Assembly (NCBI RefSeq): GCF_900475275.1
Contig: NZ_LS483364.1
Span: forward strand, 1,550,001-1,614,000
DNA length: 64,000 nucleotides
Origin: Streptococcus sanguinis
Lineage (GTDB): Bacteria > Bacillota > Bacilli > Lactobacillales > Streptococcaceae
Reading direction: 5' to 3'
Made by a program: the position numbers and the translations under genes. The notes beneath the pieces are model-generated. The model ran no database searches, was not told the DNA's origin, and saw only the letters and a program-made list of their open reading frames with translations. The first letter of the stretch is position 1, and each line of letters opens with the position of its first letter. Shown here one piece after another: positions 53,493-58,408 of this stretch.

Positions 53493-53798
53493 CTATTGAC
53501 TATCATAGATATATTCTTCCAGATGTTCTGCGACTGTAATCTCAACTCCAACATCAGATGTTAGATAAATCACGGTACAGTCATGAGCTGGGACAATAGG
53601 AAATAAAAAGGGCTTCATATTTTGATAAATTCTATACATCCGCCTTTGACTCGTTGGATTTTCAAGATAAAGCTTGCTGTCACCACCAGAAAAGTCAGCT
53701 GGCAGAAGGGCATAATAAGCTACCAAAGCTCCATTTTCATCCAATACTCTAGTCTTATTTAAATCCTCAGCTATTTTTTTCATCATTAAAGTAGCCAT
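53493..53798 (-). CDS. Protein of unknown function, 101 residues
   Basis: A soluble, mixed composition protein (KKIAEDLNKTRVLDENGALVAYYALLPADF ... FPIVPAHDCTVIYLTSDVGVEITVAEHLEEYIYD) with no signal peptide or membrane span. I do not recognise a domain. GGGAGG sits before the ATG and a terminator separates it from the lipoprotein gene upstream. Confidence 0.65.
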   Translation of the reverse strand: MATLMMKKIAEDLNKTRVLDENGALVAYYALLPADFSGGDSKLYLENPTSQRRMYRIYQNMKPFLFPIVPAHDCTVIYLTSDVGVEITVAEHLEEYIYDSQ

Positions 53799-53875: not shown

Positions 53876-54490
53876 CTAATTAGATACGCGATAATACGGA
53901 TGCTGGGAAGCAGTGATAGCATCTTGTCCAACTCGAATCTGTGCTTTAGGATTCTCGTTTCCAGTATCAGGCAAAACAGCTCCTTCTGGAATTACTAAAA
54001 AGGTTGCGCTACTGCTACCAGCAGTATAAGCAAGAGTAGATACATAACTACCATCGCTTACTTGACCTTTTAGTAAAGTATAATCGCTGGATTCTTTTCC
54101 ATTCAGAGTATGAGAAACGACCCCTTGATTATTCAATACTATCGCATCCCCCAAATCATTTTGCCAAGTACCGGCTACAGTCGAAAAATCTCCTGCTGCC
54201 AAAGCATTGACATCGATACCCGCTGCTGGAGTGGCTGGGTCTTTCGTGTCAGACTTTGTTTCATTTTTAGGCTGAGCTTCAGAAGATACTGACGCTGCAT
54301 CAGTTTCATCTGGGCTAGCTGATGGAACAGCTTTCGCTTCAGACTTAGAATCTGATTTAGAAGTTTGAACTGTTTGGCTAGAGCTATTACTTTGAGATGT
54401 TTGCTTGTCCTGCTGTTTACTGCAAGCACCAAGCAAGATAATGGAAGAAGTGAGTGCAGTCGCAAGAAACATTAATTTTGCATTTTTCAT
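53876..54490 (-). CDS. Lipoprotein with DUF6287-type domain
   Basis: 204 residues. A type II signal peptide with lipobox LLGAC (Cys at residue 23) and a Ser/Thr/Glu-rich linker (residues 25 to about 90) lead to a small beta domain: DFSTVAGTWQNDLGDAIVLNNQGVVSHTL, the pattern of the streptococcal DUF6287 domain. Anchored on the outer membrane face. The function is unknown. It has a good promoter of its own. Confidence 0.8.
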   Translation of the reverse strand: MKNAKLMFLATALTSSIILLGACSKQQDKQTSQSNSSSQTVQTSKSDSKSEAKAVPSASPDETDAASVSSEAQPKNETKSDTKDPATPAAGIDVNALAAGDFSTVAGTWQNDLGDAIVLNNQGVVSHTLNGKESSDYTLLKGQVSDGSYVSTLAYTAGSSSATFLVIPEGAVLPDTGNENPKAQIRVGQDAITASQHPYYRVSN

Positions 54491-54584: not shown

Positions 54585-57008
54585 TTAATTTATTGCTACA
54601 TAACGACGGCTACCACTATACCCAACATAGCTAATCCACTGATGACCATCTGCAATAAAAGTTTGATCATAAAAGACTGTGCTCCCTTTGTCAAAGTTTG
54701 CTAGTTCTGGACTTGATATTTTAGCTTCAGACCGAATAGAAGCATAGCCTTGAAAAACGTAATTCCCTTTTGATGGAATAGATATAGTTGGTAATGCGAC
54801 TTCCGTAGTAGCTGAGCCGGCACCTACAAGTTTTCCATCATCCTGAACGTAGTACAGGTGGACGTTGTATTTCCCTGTGGAATTTTTATGATCACTTACT
54901 TTAATAGTCTGTTTGTAAGTCCCATCTGGTTGCTTGCTAGCAGTGTACCAAACCACGTCATCCTGGTCATTGGCAGCAGACCATGTAGGTACCTTTACTT
55001 CTTTTACACCACCAGGATTAGAAACATTAGACACAATAATATCAAAGGTACCTGTCTTTGAAGTATTATTCCGAATAGTAATAGTTCCTGTCGGCCGGAT
55101 TAATTCCTTATCCAAGGAGACTTCTGTCGTCGTTCCTGTTACACAAATCATTTGGCCATTATTTTGAACATAGTATAAATGCACATTATATTTTCCAGTG
55201 GAATATTTATGATCGCTAGCCTTTATTGTCAATTTGTAAGTGCCATCCGATTGTCTTTTAGGAGTATACCAAATAATATCATCTTGATCATTCGCACTAG
55301 ACCATGTAGGTACTTTTACTTCTTTTACACCACCAGGATTGGAAATGTTAGATATAACAACATCAAAGGTTCCTGTTTTTGAATTATTATTTTGAATAGT
55401 AATTTTCCCTTCAGGCTTCTTAATAGAAACGGTAGTCTTCGTTCCCCCAGCTCCAACCATTTCCCCATTATTTTGAACATAATATAGATGGATATTATAC
55501 TCTCCCGTAGAACCTTTATGTTTATTTGCATTGACAGTTATTTTATATGTTCCATTAGGCTGTTTAGCAGCAGTGTACCAAACAATATCATCTTGTCCAT
55601 TTTCACTTGACCAAGTTGGTAATTTCACTTCTTTCACACCATACGGGCTAGAGACATCAGATACAATGACATCAAAAGTCCCTGTCTGAGCATTATTGTT
55701 TTGGATAGTCAAGGTTCCCTTTAAAGGAGCCTTTGTCTTTGTTACTCCAATGGCAATATATCTACGATTTCCAGCAAAGGAGAGATAGCTAATCCATTGA
55801 TGGCCATCTGCTTCCAATTTACGATCATATGTAACAGTTTGTCCTGCATCATAATAAGCTAATTCAGGACTAGACATCTTAGGCTCAGCTTTAATGGAGG
55901 CTCTTTGAGTGAAATGATACACTCCACTGGCAGGGATTCCTTGATTATCAGAAGGCTGGGAAATCGGTGTGGATGTACCTCCAATGATATCTTTAAAATG
56001 TATAAAGCCTGAGATTGAACTTGCAGCAACTACTCTGCGATTATAACTTTTACTCCAAGCATAGTTATATTCTTCAATTTCTACATTATTTCCCAATACA
56101 TTGGACACCCATGCTACATGTCCGTAACTTCCATCATCAATCCAAGCGACTGAGCCAAGAGCTGGATGATTATCTACCCTGTATCCTTCTCTTCTTGCCC
56201 GATATCCCCATTCACCGCCATTTCCGTACGCACGAGGAATGTTAAAACCATTAACTGAACTTAATCTATAAGCAGTAAATGAAGTACAATTTTTAACAAT
56301 AAGTCCCCAATCGTCCGCAGCATAATCAGGGAGATTTTTAAACCTTACTGGATAATCATCGCCTCGAGCGATTGAACCATTCCCTGTAGCCAGTAAAGTC
56401 GTATGTCCAGTCCCGTTTGCAACTTTACCAACAGTTGTTTTGAGAGTTGTTTTTTCTTCTTTAGTTGCACGGCGGCGGCTGACATCATTAACAATTGAGG
56501 TGGCTGGCTTATCTACATTCGAAGCGGCATAGCCACGTGTTACTAAATGTTTAGGATTAGTAGGATCATCTATAACTGGATTTATTTCAACAGTTTTCTG
56601 TTTTTCATTAACTGTTGAAGTTTGATCAGAAACAGGCTCAGTGTTGATTGGAATATCATTTGCATTTGTCGCTTTATTTTCAGTTTCTAGTGGTTCAGGA
56701 ACTTCAGAAGTTACTCCATTTTCAATACTAACTAAATTGTTATTTACAGCATTTTTTGTTTCCGATTCAATATCAGAACTTACTGTTGCATTTGACTTTT
56801 CTGAAACACTCTGATTTGTGTCCACAGCTATGTCAGAAGGTGCTGTAGAAACTACTGAATCAGTACCAGTTGGCGAAATTACTTGATCAGCAGCAACTGT
56901 TTGAGTCCCTGCAAATAATAATGTTCCTAGAAGCACTGAAACTGCTCCTAGAGAATATTTACGAATAGAAAAACGTTGAACCTGCTTATTAAAAAATTGA
57001 TTTTTCAT
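54585..57008 (-). CDS. Secreted CHAP-domain cell-wall hydrolase with SH3 and Bsp-like repeats
   Basis: 807 residues. A YSIRK-type signal (FSIRKYSLGAVS, residues 13-24) and a low-complexity linker to about 200 are followed by a CHAP amidase/endopeptidase domain (about 215-340; Cys241 in KNCTSF, His297 in YGHVAW, EIEEYNY after it). Then come an SH3b domain (about 360-425), three GBS-Bsp-like repeats (about 430-530, 535-632, 640-740) and a second SH3b domain (748-807). There is no LPXTG, so it is released or wall-bound by the SH3/Bsp modules. The layout recalls lytic fratricins such as CbpD or LytF. It follows a 15-codon ORF and an RRNPP regulator. Confidence 0.88.
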   Translation of the reverse strand: MKNQFFNKQVQRFSIRKYSLGAVSVLLGTLLFAGTQTVAADQVISPTGTDSVVSTAPSDIAVDTNQSVSEKSNATVSSDIESETKNAVNNNLVSIENGVTSEVPEPLETENKATNANDIPINTEPVSDQTSTVNEKQKTVEINPVIDDPTNPKHLVTRGYAASNVDKPATSIVNDVSRRRATKEEKTTLKTTVGKVANGTGHTTLLATGNGSIARGDDYPVRFKNLPDYAADDWGLIVKNCTSFTAYRLSSVNGFNIPRAYGNGGEWGYRARREGYRVDNHPALGSVAWIDDGSYGHVAWVSNVLGNNVEIEEYNYAWSKSYNRRVVAASSISGFIHFKDIIGGTSTPISQPSDNQGIPASGVYHFTQRASIKAEPKMSSPELAYYDAGQTVTYDRKLEADGHQWISYLSFAGNRRYIAIGVTKTKAPLKGTLTIQNNNAQTGTFDVIVSDVSSPYGVKEVKLPTWSSENGQDDIVWYTAAKQPNGTYKITVNANKHKGSTGEYNIHLYYVQNNGEMVGAGGTKTTVSIKKPEGKITIQNNNSKTGTFDVVISNISNPGGVKEVKVPTWSSANDQDDIIWYTPKRQSDGTYKLTIKASDHKYSTGKYNVHLYYVQNNGQMICVTGTTTEVSLDKELIRPTGTITIRNNTSKTGTFDIIVSNVSNPGGVKEVKVPTWSAANDQDDVVWYTASKQPDGTYKQTIKVSDHKNSTGKYNVHLYYVQDDGKLVGAGSATTEVALPTISIPSKGNYVFQGYASIRSEAKISSPELANFDKGSTVFYDQTFIADGHQWISYVGYSGSRRYVAIN
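54789..55718 (-). repeat. Three tandem Bsp-like repeats in the hydrolase gene
   Basis: About 300-bp units coding for TGTFDV(I/V)(V/I)S ... GVKEVK(V/L)PTWS ... DD(I/V)(I/V)WYT ... HLYYVQ. Units 2 and 3 are most alike at the DNA level, suggesting recent duplication. Confidence 0.8.
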
Positions 57009-57056: not shown

Positions 57057-57104
57057 CTAAAGCCAAAACCAAATCATGGCGAGATAATAAGAAATCCTAA
57101 ACAT
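57057..57104 (-). CDS. 15-residue hydrophobic peptide ORF, candidate pheromone or leader peptide
   Basis: MFRISYYLAMIWFWL, 15 residues, preceded by AAAGGAGAGAATCAC (near-ideal ribosome site) and a TATAAT box about 40 bp upstream. It lies between an RRNPP-type regulator and the CHAP hydrolase gene, all on the minus strand. One basic residue near the start and an aromatic, Trp-rich C-terminus recall short hydrophobic peptides and the tryptophan-containing ComS/XIP class. The alternative is a leader peptide of the hydrolase transcript. Confidence 0.45.
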   Translation of the reverse strand: MFRISYYLAMIWFWL

Positions 57105-57144
57105 GTGATTCTCTCCTTTCCTATTTAACTTTTTCCATGTTTCA

Positions 57145-57150
57145 ATTATA
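57145..57150 (-). promoter_or_regulatory. -10 box of the peptide/hydrolase transcript
   Basis: TATAAT on the minus strand, about 40 bp upstream of the 15-codon ORF. The -35 position reads TGTTTT, a poor match, as expected for an activator-dependent promoter. Confidence 0.5.
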
Positions 57151-57165
57151 GACTCAATTACAAAT

Positions 57166-57189
57166 AAAAAACAGGACATAGATGTCCTG
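57166..57189 (-). terminator. Terminator of the RRNPP regulator gene, alternatively its operator
   Basis: Perfect palindrome CAGGACAT-AG-ATGTCCTG (57172-57189) followed on the minus strand by TTTTTT. It is read first as an intrinsic terminator. Its GACA...TGTC core and its position next to the poor -35 also fit a ComR-type activator box, so both uses are possible. Confidence 0.55.
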
Positions 57190-58125
57190 CTAGCCTTGAT
57201 GATAGAGCCGAAGTTCTTTATTCCACTCCTCAGCCATTTTTTTAGATAGAAAAGTATGACCTAACAATCTTGCCAGTGTCAGTCCCTCTTCATAGTATTG
57301 TTGAGCTTTTTTCTCGTCCTTGTGTACGAAAAGCTCATATTCTCCCTCTAACATTCTTATCAGCGGTTTCTTTTGATAGTCCTCTGTCAATTCCATGATT
57401 ACATTAAGTTTGTTGAGCGTATCTTTTGTATAAATGAACTCTTTTCGCTCGCACTCAATACCTGGGATTGTCAGTAGAGCATCTCGCATGAGAAAGAGAT
57501 ATTCATTTGGAATATAGTCAACTGACTGCAGTAATCGCTGAGCGATTCTTGCATATAATTCCTTATCAAACTTAGCTGACCGAATCTCCTCTTCATCTCC
57601 CACATAGATCTGATAGAGCTGGATGTAGAGTAAATCATTCACGTCATAATGCTTTTTACTCTGCAAATCGTCCAAATGCTGGGCAAAGAGAGTCATTCCA
57701 TACTTATGGAATTTCTCAGAAGTATAAGTATAAATCTTTGATTGCAAGATATCCATTACATTCTGCTCAGCTTCTGGCAAATCATCATAATAAACTTCAA
57801 AAATTTCATCTATGATATGCTCCAATTCGAACAAAGCTTCGGTATTGCCATAAGTGGTCGTCCGAATCAGCTTATACTTCAAGCGCTGATAGTCAGTAGG
57901 TAGAGCTACATCTTCTTTTTTACTTCCTGTCAAAGTTGTCAAATCGACCTCTAGACAGAAAGCCAGATATTCTAAAGTAGAAAGAGTAGGCTGGGAAATG
58001 CCTGACTCCAAACGGGTTAACTGCCGTATAGAAAGCTTTGACTCATCACCACACAATTGCTCCTTAGTCCAGCCCCTATTTAATCGAAGCTGTTTCAAAT
58101 GCTGTCCAAATTCTTTTCCTTGCAT
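57190..58125 (-). CDS. RRNPP-family transcriptional regulator (ComR/PlcR/TprA-like)
   Basis: 311 residues. An N-terminal HTH (about residues 6-60; HLKQLRLNRGWTKEQLC ... LSIRQLTRLESGISQPTLSTLEYLAFCLEVDL) carries the xRQLxRxExGxSxPTL signature of peptide-sensing ComR, TprA and PlcR. A long helical C-terminal part consistent with TPR repeats (YEEGLTLARLLGHTFLSKKMAEEW at the end) would bind a peptide. The ATG at 58125 has GGGAGGGG; the TTG two codons earlier is rejected. The short peptide ORF immediately downstream is the natural candidate ligand. Confidence 0.82.
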   Translation of the reverse strand: MQGKEFGQHLKQLRLNRGWTKEQLCGDESKLSIRQLTRLESGISQPTLSTLEYLAFCLEVDLTTLTGSKKEDVALPTDYQRLKYKLIRTTTYGNTEALFELEHIIDEIFEVYYDDLPEAEQNVMDILQSKIYTYTSEKFHKYGMTLFAQHLDDLQSKKHYDVNDLLYIQLYQIYVGDEEEIRSAKFDKELYARIAQRLLQSVDYIPNEYLFLMRDALLTIPGIECERKEFIYTKDTLNKLNVIMELTEDYQKKPLIRMLEGEYELFVHKDEKKAQQYYEEGLTLARLLGHTFLSKKMAEEWNKELRLYHQG

Positions 58126-58188
58126 CGTCAATCCCCTCCCAAATAAATCAGGAAACTTTTGGTTATGTTATCATGTTATTCTAGATTT

Positions 58189-58260: not shown

Positions 58261-58321
58261 CTACCTAACTGTTGCAACAGTTAGGTAGAGCGGAGCTATT
58301 GAGACCTTAGGCTCAATAGCT
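58261..58321. repeat. Two adjacent palindromes in the regulator-lipid kinase intergenic region
   Basis: CTACCTAACTGTTG/CAACAGTTAGGTAG (58261-58288, perfect 14-bp arms without spacer) and AGCTATTGAG/CTCAATAGCT (58294-58321, 8 nt loop). The surrounding 350 bp hold no gene I can support. It looks like a small mobile-element remnant or structured RNA. Confidence 0.55.
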
Positions 58322-58408
58322 AGTCATGGAACTCTGCAGGAGGTCGCTGACATCCGCCATCACTTGAGAAAAGCATGTAAATCTAAAAATTAGTATATTA
58401 CAAGTATT

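What the first reader, a model, noticed from the sequence alone, without database searches (positions are those of the whole stretch)
57057..58125. Undescribed-looking RRNPP regulator with a 15-residue peptide gene and a cell-wall hydrolase
Seen: a ComR/TprA/PlcR-type regulator, then on the same strand a 15-codon ORF (MFRISYYLAMIWFWL) with a near-perfect ribosome site and its own -10 box, then a secreted CHAP hydrolase. Known: ComR-ComS, PlcR-PapR and similar pairs encode the peptide directly downstream of the sensor, and several streptococcal pheromones are Trp-rich and hydrophobic. Inference: the peptide, or its C-terminal IWFWL part, may be exported, re-imported by the oligopeptide permease, and activate the hydrolase as a predation or fratricide switch. 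The peptide is shorter than most ComS or SHP precursors, so a leader peptide is the main rival explanation.
Basis: partly seen in the sequence, partly recalled or inferred. Interest (0 to 1): 0.8.

Follow-up and report, generated by a model that had tools for sequence, protein, structure and literature searches.

The report
Pheromone-like switch for a killing enzyme
Some strains of an oral streptococcus carry an optional block of genes in which a peptide-sensing switch sits in front of a tiny peptide gene, a cell-wall-cutting enzyme and a lipoprotein that looks like its antidote, which suggests that the cells may decide together when to attack their neighbours.

Summary
The regulator (57190-58131, minus) is of the ComR family. 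The 15-codon ORF follows with a 7-nt Shine-Dalgarno match. It is identical in the 3 S. sanguinis-type genomes found with the hydrolase, and Streptococcus sp. DD10 has MNFWCLLSAWFKF at the same distance. Against a simple pheromone pair: two S. sanguinis genomes keep regulator and box without peptide or hydrolase; other clade loci have weak or no peptide frames; and the residue that clamps XIP's C-terminus (K100) is L or M in all 11 clade rows. The larger finding lies outside the given coordinates. The locus is an optional island, absent in 6 of 12 S. sanguinis-type genomes examined. Strain 2908 has divergent alleles of the CHAP catalytic domain and of the DUF6287 lipoprotein behind it, while the compared rest of the hydrolase is 97% identical. 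Some CHAP-less strains keep the lipoprotein. I read this as a ComR-controlled, polymorphic hydrolase/immunity module. Pheromone role and immunity are inferred, not shown.

The parts
57190..58131 (-). ComR-family regulator (313 aa from TTG; 311 aa from the likelier ATG at 58125)
57172..57189 (-). ComR-box CAGGACATCTATGTCCTG; also scores as a terminator of the regulator gene
   Evidence: GACA-N4-TGTC just after the stop; such a site in 12 of 12 clade loci and 14 of 19 other loci scanned; terminator-like
57145..57150 (-). -10 hexamer TATAAT, 21 nt after the box palindrome, behind a T-rich spacer
   Evidence: 25 of 26 boxes have TANNNT 23-24 nt after TGTC (the exception is L008); shuffles mean 2.8, maximum 10; no -35-type hexamer listed for it
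57112..57119 (-). Shine-Dalgarno AAAGGAGA of the 15-codon ORF
   Evidence: read from sequence; 7-nt match
57057..57104 (-). 15-codon ORF MFRISYYLAMIWFWL, candidate pheromone precursor
   Evidence: 0 of 48 nt changed in G063 and G105; DD10 counterpart MNFWCLLSAWFKF at the same +85 position with a 5-nt Shine-Dalgarno match
54585..57008 (-). Secreted peptidoglycan hydrolase: YSIRK signal, CHAP, SH3_5, three Bsp repeats, SH3_5 (807 aa; place of the first SH3_5 read from the sequence)
55914..56372 (-). Exchangeable block (residues 213-365) holding the CHAP catalytic domain
   Evidence: G105 vs window: synonymous divergence 0.667 inside, 0.034-0.071 outside; boundaries in 20-nt steps
53876..54490 (-). 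DUF6287 lipoprotein (204 aa), candidate immunity protein
   Evidence: Pfam PF19804; lipobox cysteine C23 invariant in alignment A2; related gene behind hydrolases of this type in 7 of 13 fetched loci
53921..54145 (-). Variable C-terminal part of the lipoprotein (residues 116-190), within a predicted beta-barrel from about residue 90
   Evidence: G105 vs window: synonymous 0.694 and nonsynonymous 0.451, 0 in residues 191-204; model pLDDT about 80-90 there, 58 in one block
53493..53798 (-). 101-aa protein of unknown function at the end of the island
   Evidence: no Pfam match; homologue in the loci of G040, G053, G083, G114, G180 and G090

Best explanation
The locus is an optional island in which a ComR-family, peptide-responsive regulator activates one promoter (ComR-box, T-rich spacer, -10). 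That promoter drives an autoinducer-like peptide gene, then a secreted CHAP hydrolase, then a DUF6287 lipoprotein. Proposed working: the 15-residue peptide is exported and trimmed to a Trp/Phe-rich C-terminal piece (about IWFWL to AMIWFWL), re-imported, and bound by the regulator, which then raises peptide, hydrolase and lipoprotein together. The hydrolase attacks neighbours that lack the matching lipoprotein, and the lipoprotein protects the producer. Shown by computation: regulator family, box and promoter geometry, conservation of the peptide region, the optional nature of the island, and coupled exchange of the CHAP domain and the lipoprotein in one strain. Inferred: processing, transport, binding, activation, attack and immunity.
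For: ComR family by sequence and predicted fold. DNA-reading residues R35 and R39, which contact the GACA half-sites in ComR (PMC5131891, passages read), are kept in 32 of 32 rows. Box and -10 spacing fixed in 25 of 26 loci; PMC6703854 (passages) describes the same architecture for ComR-type promoters. In all 14 non-clade loci with a box, an ATG frame with Trp and a Shine-Dalgarno match of 6-8 nt starts 66-76 nt after the regulator's stop; the window's starts at +85 with 7 nt, DD10's at +85 with 5 nt. Window and DD10 peptides share [AI]WF[KW][LF] at the C-terminus though the regulators are 45% identical. The one non-clade row without K or R at position 100 (G130, V) has a peptide ending IWWFR, close to IWFWL. 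Intergenic stretch 2 of 181 nt changed in G105, against 48 of 942 in the regulator and 165 of 2424 (plus 12 gaps) in the hydrolase gene. CHAP catalytic domain 73% identity against 97% for residues 60-180 plus 350-530, and the lipoprotein exchanged in the same genome. CHAP-less loci keep the lipoprotein in two lineages: G182 and G257 beside G000; G083 and G114 beside G180. A related lipoprotein follows the hydrolase in 7 of 13 fetched CHAP loci, against 0 of 21 short CHAP loci, and four of the seven sit behind other signalling or sensory regulators.
Against: Two S. sanguinis genomes keep an intact regulator (dN/dS 0.08-0.13 against the peptide-bearing genomes; 0.28 on few changes between the two) and the box without the peptide, so either the regulator has another ligand or these strains respond without signalling. 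No Trp-containing frame stands behind the box in G053 (two copies), G083 and G114; G040 and G180 have only GTG frames with 4 and 0 nt of Shine-Dalgarno match. K100, which binds the peptide carboxylate in ComR, is L or M in 11 of 11 clade rows and K or R in 20 of 21 others. Conservation covers the whole intergenic stretch, not the codons alone. Coupled exchange of CHAP and lipoprotein rests on one strain (G105), whose lipoprotein signal peptide differs too. In G063 the CHAP allele is the same, yet the N-terminal half of the lipoprotein differs. The lipoprotein fold has no clear PDB match. 6 of 13 fetched CHAP loci have no such lipoprotein.
Confidence: 0.5

Rival explanations
1. The 15-codon ORF is a translated leader of the hydrolase gene, for example coupling or timing its translation, and not a signal. 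The ComR-like regulator senses some other molecule.
For: In S. sanguinis-type genomes the ORF occurs only with the hydrolase, not in the two that keep the regulator without it. The whole intergenic stretch is conserved, not the codons alone. The carboxylate clamp K100 is lost.
Against: No attenuator-like fold (z 0.37) and no Rfam match on it. It has its own strong Shine-Dalgarno, and the hydrolase has a separate start 48 nt on. It sits close to where comS-like frames sit in 14 of 14 other boxed loci. The DD10 ORF shares the WF C-terminal pattern although its sequence differs otherwise.
Confidence: 0.25
2. The regulator's ligand comes from elsewhere, for example from the signal peptide of the DUF6287 lipoprotein, as enterococcal sex pheromones come from lipoprotein signal peptides (recalled). 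The lipoprotein is the only partner kept in every intact locus of the clade that I surveyed.
For: A DUF6287-type lipoprotein follows, directly or behind the hydrolase, in 11 of 11 clade loci with an intact regulator. In G182 and G257 the box promoter drives it directly, with no room for a peptide gene.
Against: Signal peptides of these lipoproteins differ between strains with near-identical regulators (G105 vs the others). Lipoproteins of this kind also follow CHAP genes behind unrelated regulators.
Confidence: 0.12
3. The hydrolase serves the producer's own wall (remodelling, separation, DNA or vesicle release). The lipoprotein tunes it, and allele exchange reflects immune or phage pressure on surface proteins.
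For: YSIRK, Bsp and SH3_5 domains are common in streptococcal wall proteins (recalled). LytF of S. sanguinis SK36 was reported not to act as a fratricin (PMC13192262, abstract and passages).
Against: The island is absent in 6 of 12 S. sanguinis-type genomes, so it is dispensable. Within the hydrolase the exchange hits only the catalytic block, not the Bsp and SH3 repeats. Some CHAP-less strains keep the lipoprotein.
Confidence: 0.25
4. The palindrome is only the terminator of the regulator gene, and the regulator acts elsewhere.
For: It scores as a terminator-like site, and another perfect GGACA-N4-TGTCC in the genome looks like a terminator.
Against: The fixed distance to a -10 hexamer in 25 of 26 loci is not expected of a terminator. 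The GACA/TGTC inverted repeat is the operator core of ComR in the literature.
Confidence: 0.06

Closest known systems
ComR/ComS (XIP) competence systems of mutans, pyogenic, bovis, suis and salivarius streptococci
   Same: Regulator family, ComR-box with T-rich spacer and fixed -10, short peptide gene with good Shine-Dalgarno behind the regulator, aromatic C-terminus
   Different: Separate clade (99/99); K100 and the PTY motif altered; the neighbouring target is a hydrolase/lipoprotein operon. S. sanguinis is described as using ComCDE for competence (PMC13192262 passages)
ScuR and SarF, ComR paralogues of S. salivarius (PMC6703854, passages)
   Same: Extra ComR-type regulators tied to predation rather than competence
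   [quoted passage not shown] here there is one. Targets there are bacteriocins, here a hydrolase
RopB/SIP leaderless peptide systems (PMC10518010, passages)
   Same: Very short Trp-containing hydrophobic peptide beside its regulator (and, for SpeB, a secreted enzyme)
   Different: The regulator here is ComR-type, not RopB/Rgg; the peptide gene is co-oriented behind a ComR-box; the internal MIWFWL start has no Shine-Dalgarno match
LytF and CbpD, competence-linked murein hydrolases
   Same: CHAP hydrolase with Bsp repeats (LytF), proposed attack on relatives
   Different: CHAP comes before the Bsp repeats here, YSIRK signal, own regulator, lipoprotein partner; LytF has N-terminal Bsp and C-terminal CHAP (PMC13192262 passages)
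Polymorphic toxin/immunity systems and bacteriolysins with immunity genes (recalled)
   Same: Exchangeable catalytic domain, co-varying neighbour gene, orphan neighbours in strains without the effector
   Different: Candidate immunity is a DUF6287 lipoprotein, which I have not seen described as such (2 papers name DUF6287, listing only); one exchanged pair only

Membership tests
ComR family of RRNPP regulators | ComR-type TPR domain above the curated cut-off | tested here: met
   PF18710 199.7 bits, cut-off 26.5; ComR chains lead the structural comparison
ComR family of RRNPP regulators | R35 and R39 that read the GACA half-sites | tested here: met
   R36 and R40 of the window protein; 32 of 32 rows
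ComR family of RRNPP regulators | K100 (or R) that binds the peptide carboxylate, and the PTY motif | tested here: not met
   L103 in the window; L or M in 11 of 11 clade rows; motif TTY in the window. This lowers the claim of XIP-like docking, not family membership by domain
ComRS pheromone pair | ComR-box promoter with fixed spacing in front of a short ORF behind the regulator | tested here: met
ComRS pheromone pair | Peptide gene present wherever the regulator is | tested here: not met
   Absent in G182 and G257; no Trp frame in G053 (two copies), G083, G114; weak GTG frames in G040, G180
ComRS pheromone pair | Peptide binds and activates the regulator; control of comX | not testable with these tools
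   needs binding and reporter assays
Leaderless communication peptide (RopB type) | Rgg/RopB-type regulator | tested here: not met
   ComR_TPR is the only C-terminal family listed; Rgg_C is not among the Pfam matches
LytF | N-terminal Bsp repeats, C-terminal CHAP | tested here: not met
   CHAP at 233-315, best Bsp stretch at 537-627
Polymorphic toxin/immunity system | Effector catalytic domain exchanged while the rest is conserved | tested here: met
   one strain pair
Polymorphic toxin/immunity system | Neighbour allele co-varies with the effector allele | tested here: inconclusive
   A/A in G000 and G063, B/B in G105; three linked genomes only
Polymorphic toxin/immunity system | Orphan immunity genes without the effector | tested here: inconclusive
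   G182, G257, G083, G114 keep the lipoprotein at CHAP-less loci, but that it is an immunity gene is inferred
Polymorphic toxin/immunity system | Neighbour protein neutralises the effector | not testable with these tools
   needs an in vitro inhibition assay

The most novel reading that the evidence does not exclude
Streptococci use a mobile two-gene weapon, a secreted YSIRK-CHAP wall hydrolase with an exchangeable catalytic domain plus a matching DUF6287-type lipoprotein as immunity, that has been placed behind unrelated peptide-signalling or sensory systems: a ComR-like regulator with its own peptide here and in DD10, an Rgg-type regulator in G006, GHKL-kinase/LytTR systems with similar DWW peptides in G171 and G246, and a HisKA/OmpR pair in G058. 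In S. sanguinis the island splits strains into producers, immune non-producers and strains with neither, which would be a quorum-triggered kin-discrimination locus.
Probability: 0.4. Interest if true: 0.83.

Novelty: new variant of a known kind. Interest (0 to 1): 0.68.

Why it matters
Extra ComR-type regulators are known in S. salivarius, but their peptides are reported as unidentified (PMC12445099, passages). This locus gives a concrete candidate peptide next to such a regulator, outside the salivarius group and in a species described as controlling competence by another route. If the lipoprotein is an immunity protein, the island explains how commensal oral streptococci could tell kin from non-kin with a wall hydrolase, and gives a function to DUF6287. 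The allele pairs make both ideas directly testable with purified proteins and simple deletions.

Full report
What is there. On the minus strand the window holds, in order: a ComR-family regulator (58131 or 58125 to 57190), a palindrome (57189-57172), a T-rich spacer, TATAAT (57150-57145), a Shine-Dalgarno sequence (57119-57112), the 15-codon ORF MFRISYYLAMIWFWL (57104-57057), a YSIRK-CHAP hydrolase with two SH3_5 and three Bsp stretches (57008-54585), a DUF6287 lipoprotein (54490-53876) and a 101-aa protein (53798-53493). The stretch sits between a lipid kinase gene and an nrdF-like gene (named nrdF from recall).

The promoter. Among 31 loci with a ComR-type regulator, 26 have GACW-N4-WGTC near the end of the regulator gene, including all 12 of the clade. 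In 25 of these 26 a TANNNT lies 23-24 nt after the box; shuffles give a mean of 2.8 and a maximum of 10. PMC6703854 (passages) describes the same architecture for ComR, ScuR and SarF targets. The palindrome also scores as a terminator, so it may end the regulator transcript as well. No -35-type hexamer is listed for this -10, as expected of an activated promoter. In the window's own genome, of 3 exact boxes only this one has a -10 behind it, which hints at a small regulon; weaker sites could not be judged.

The peptide. Shuffles show that an ORF of 10-40 codons with a good Shine-Dalgarno arises in 140 of 5000 cases, and with two Trp in 7 of 5000. Stronger evidence comes from position and conservation. 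In 14 of 14 non-clade loci with a box, an ATG frame of 13-21 codons with Trp and a 6-8 nt Shine-Dalgarno match starts 66-76 nt after the regulator's stop; the window's starts at +85. The 15 codons are unchanged (0 of 48 nt) in G063 and G105, and in G105 the whole 181-nt stretch has 2 changes, against 30 of 193 synonymous sites in the regulator (Fisher p 1.2e-7). The constraint covers the promoter as well as the codons, so it does not by itself prove the peptide. In G090 the regulator is 45% identical, the box is present, and MNFWCLLSAWFKF starts at +85 with a 5-nt Shine-Dalgarno match; it shares [AI]WF[KW][LF] at the C-terminus, and a YSIRK-CHAP gene follows. G090 is taken to be Streptococcus sp. 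DD10 because its contig length equals that of P0038. The one non-clade regulator without a basic residue at position 100 (G130) has a peptide ending IWWFR, close to IWFWL and AWFKF; this is a hint, found after the fact, that receptor and peptide change together.

Evidence against a simple pair. G182 and G257 have intact regulators, 95-96% identical to the window's, with the box, but the lipoprotein gene follows at once; there is no peptide and no hydrolase, and neither genome is among those with a CHAP domain of this type at E of 1e-25 or better. Their regulators stay under purifying selection against the peptide-bearing genomes (dN/dS 0.08-0.13); between the two the ratio is 0.28 on 9 synonymous and 10 nonsynonymous changes. 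G083, G114 and both copies in G053 have box then lipoprotein and no Trp-containing frame. G040 and G180 have GTG frames MHALIEWVNMIN (+83, 4 nt of Shine-Dalgarno match) and MHYFLWGF (+81, none), so their place fits but their start signals are weak. Within S. sanguinis the peptide goes with the hydrolase, not with the regulator.

An optional island. I examined 12 genomes of S. sanguinis type (lipid kinase 97-100% identical). 3 have the full set (G000, G063, G105), 2 have regulator plus lipoprotein (G182, G257), 1 has a truncated regulator with other content (G035, SK1), and in 6 (G009, G046, G047, G048, G133, G173) the lipid kinase gene lies next to nrdF with no regulator between.

Coupled exchange of two genes' parts. 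G105 and the window differ by 0-9 per 100 nt across the region, except for two sharp blocks. Inside the hydrolase gene, codons 213-365 have synonymous divergence 0.667 and nonsynonymous 0.194; codons 1-212 have 0.071 and 0.010, and codons 366-807 have 0.034 and 0.007. That block holds the CHAP catalytic domain (73% identity, against 97% over residues 60-180 plus 350-530). The second block is the lipoprotein: residues 116-190 have 0.694 and 0.451, while residues 191-204 are unchanged; its signal peptide region (1-30) also differs (0.456 and 0.300), residues 31-115 less (0.183 and 0.056). G063 has the window's CHAP allele and the window's lipoprotein C-terminus, though its lipoprotein N-terminal half differs. 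Among the database relatives aligned, two discrete C-terminal alleles recur in the close group, with reshuffled N-terminal halves (P0168, P0173), besides more distant versions. G182 and G257 carry the window's C-terminal allele without the hydrolase. The same happens in a second lineage: G180 has regulator-hydrolase-lipoprotein, while G083 and G114 have near-identical regulator and lipoprotein (96-98% nt) without that hydrolase; the YSIRK protein further downstream in them has no CHAP domain. Each of these two genomes does have one weaker CHAP match somewhere (E about 1e-35, place not listed), and G114's regulator is broken. This is what effector and immunity genes look like, but the linked pairs are few (A/A twice, B/B once).

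The module elsewhere. I fetched 13 CHAP loci, chosen from the match lists. 7 have a related lipoprotein as the next gene of size behind the hydrolase: L090, L153, L154, L155, L156, L159 and L163. 6 do not: L157, L158, L160, L161, L162 and L164. Pfam DUF6287 passes its cut-off in 5 of these 7 loci; those in L153 and L155 were recognised by BLAST only. Of 21 short CHAP loci used as control none has such a gene within 1.5 kb. Regulators upstream differ: Rgg_C (L159), GHKL kinase with a LytTR protein (L090, L163), and HisKA with an OmpR-type regulator (L153). In L090 and L163 short similar frames MNAIDWWKLLNGRH and MVYIDWWRLIKGNG lie between kinase and hydrolase on the other strand; in L090 a transposase-like gene appears to interrupt the kinase.

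How it most likely works. I commit to a ComR-type, autoinducing switch on a polymorphic hydrolase/immunity operon. Steps supported by computation: regulator family, operator and promoter, gene order, optional island, coupled exchange. Inferred steps: peptide export and trimming, import, binding without the usual K100 clamp, activation, attack on neighbours, neutralisation by the lipoprotein. My estimates by inference: about 0.85 that the regulator acts through this box, 0.55 that the peptide is the signal, 0.55 that the lipoprotein is immunity.

Known or new. ComR-type promoters, ComS peptides and predation driven by quorum sensing are known. Extra ComR regulators are known in S. [quoted passage not shown] S. 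sanguinis is described as using ComCDE for competence, and LytF has the reverse domain order (PMC13192262, abstract and passages). The parts that I saw of a table of known signal peptides (PMC13361665, passages) contain neither peptide. The locus is therefore a new variant of a known kind, with a possibly new class of hydrolase immunity attached.

Noticed in passing
L090:5024 (minus) and L163:2049 (minus): Short similar frames MNAIDWWKLLNGRH (G171) and MVYIDWWRLIKGNG (G246) with Shine-Dalgarno sequences between a GHKL kinase and a YSIRK-CHAP gene: XIP-like DWW peptides beside a two-component system rather than ComR.
   Followed up: partly
L159:1183-5249: Rgg-type regulator, an antisense 36-codon frame beginning MKKKVTYVILAISLSL, a YSIRK-CHAP hydrolase and a DUF6287 lipoprotein in G006: possibly an Rgg/SHP-controlled version of the same module.
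   Followed up: partly
L026 (G130), 71 nt after the regulator stop: ComS-like frame MFQAFLGSIWWFR beside a ComR-type regulator with V instead of K/R at position 100; its ending resembles the window peptide although the regulator lies outside the window's clade.
   Followed up: no
L083:6444-15097: Streptococcus sp. DD10 (G090) has two YSIRK-CHAP genes and five lipoprotein genes or fragments of this kind around one regulator and peptide.
   Followed up: partly
L084:6385-12959: Tandem duplication of regulator, ComR-box and lipoprotein in G053.
   Followed up: no
L052:5989-8412: In S. sanguinis SK1 (ATCC 10556) the regulator is cut to 159 aa and followed by a 75-aa frame without a Pfam match and an unrelated 433-aa gene in place of the rest of the island.
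   Followed up: no
window 58289-58352 (+): Partial match to Rfam SSRC8_2 (Streptococcus sRNA 8), 44.4 bits against a gathering score of 72, upstream of the regulator.
   Followed up: no
L163:2291-4427 and L090:2535-4901: The YSIRK-CHAP hydrolase of G246 is split into two frames; in G171 a transposase-like gene appears to interrupt the sensor kinase.
   Followed up: no
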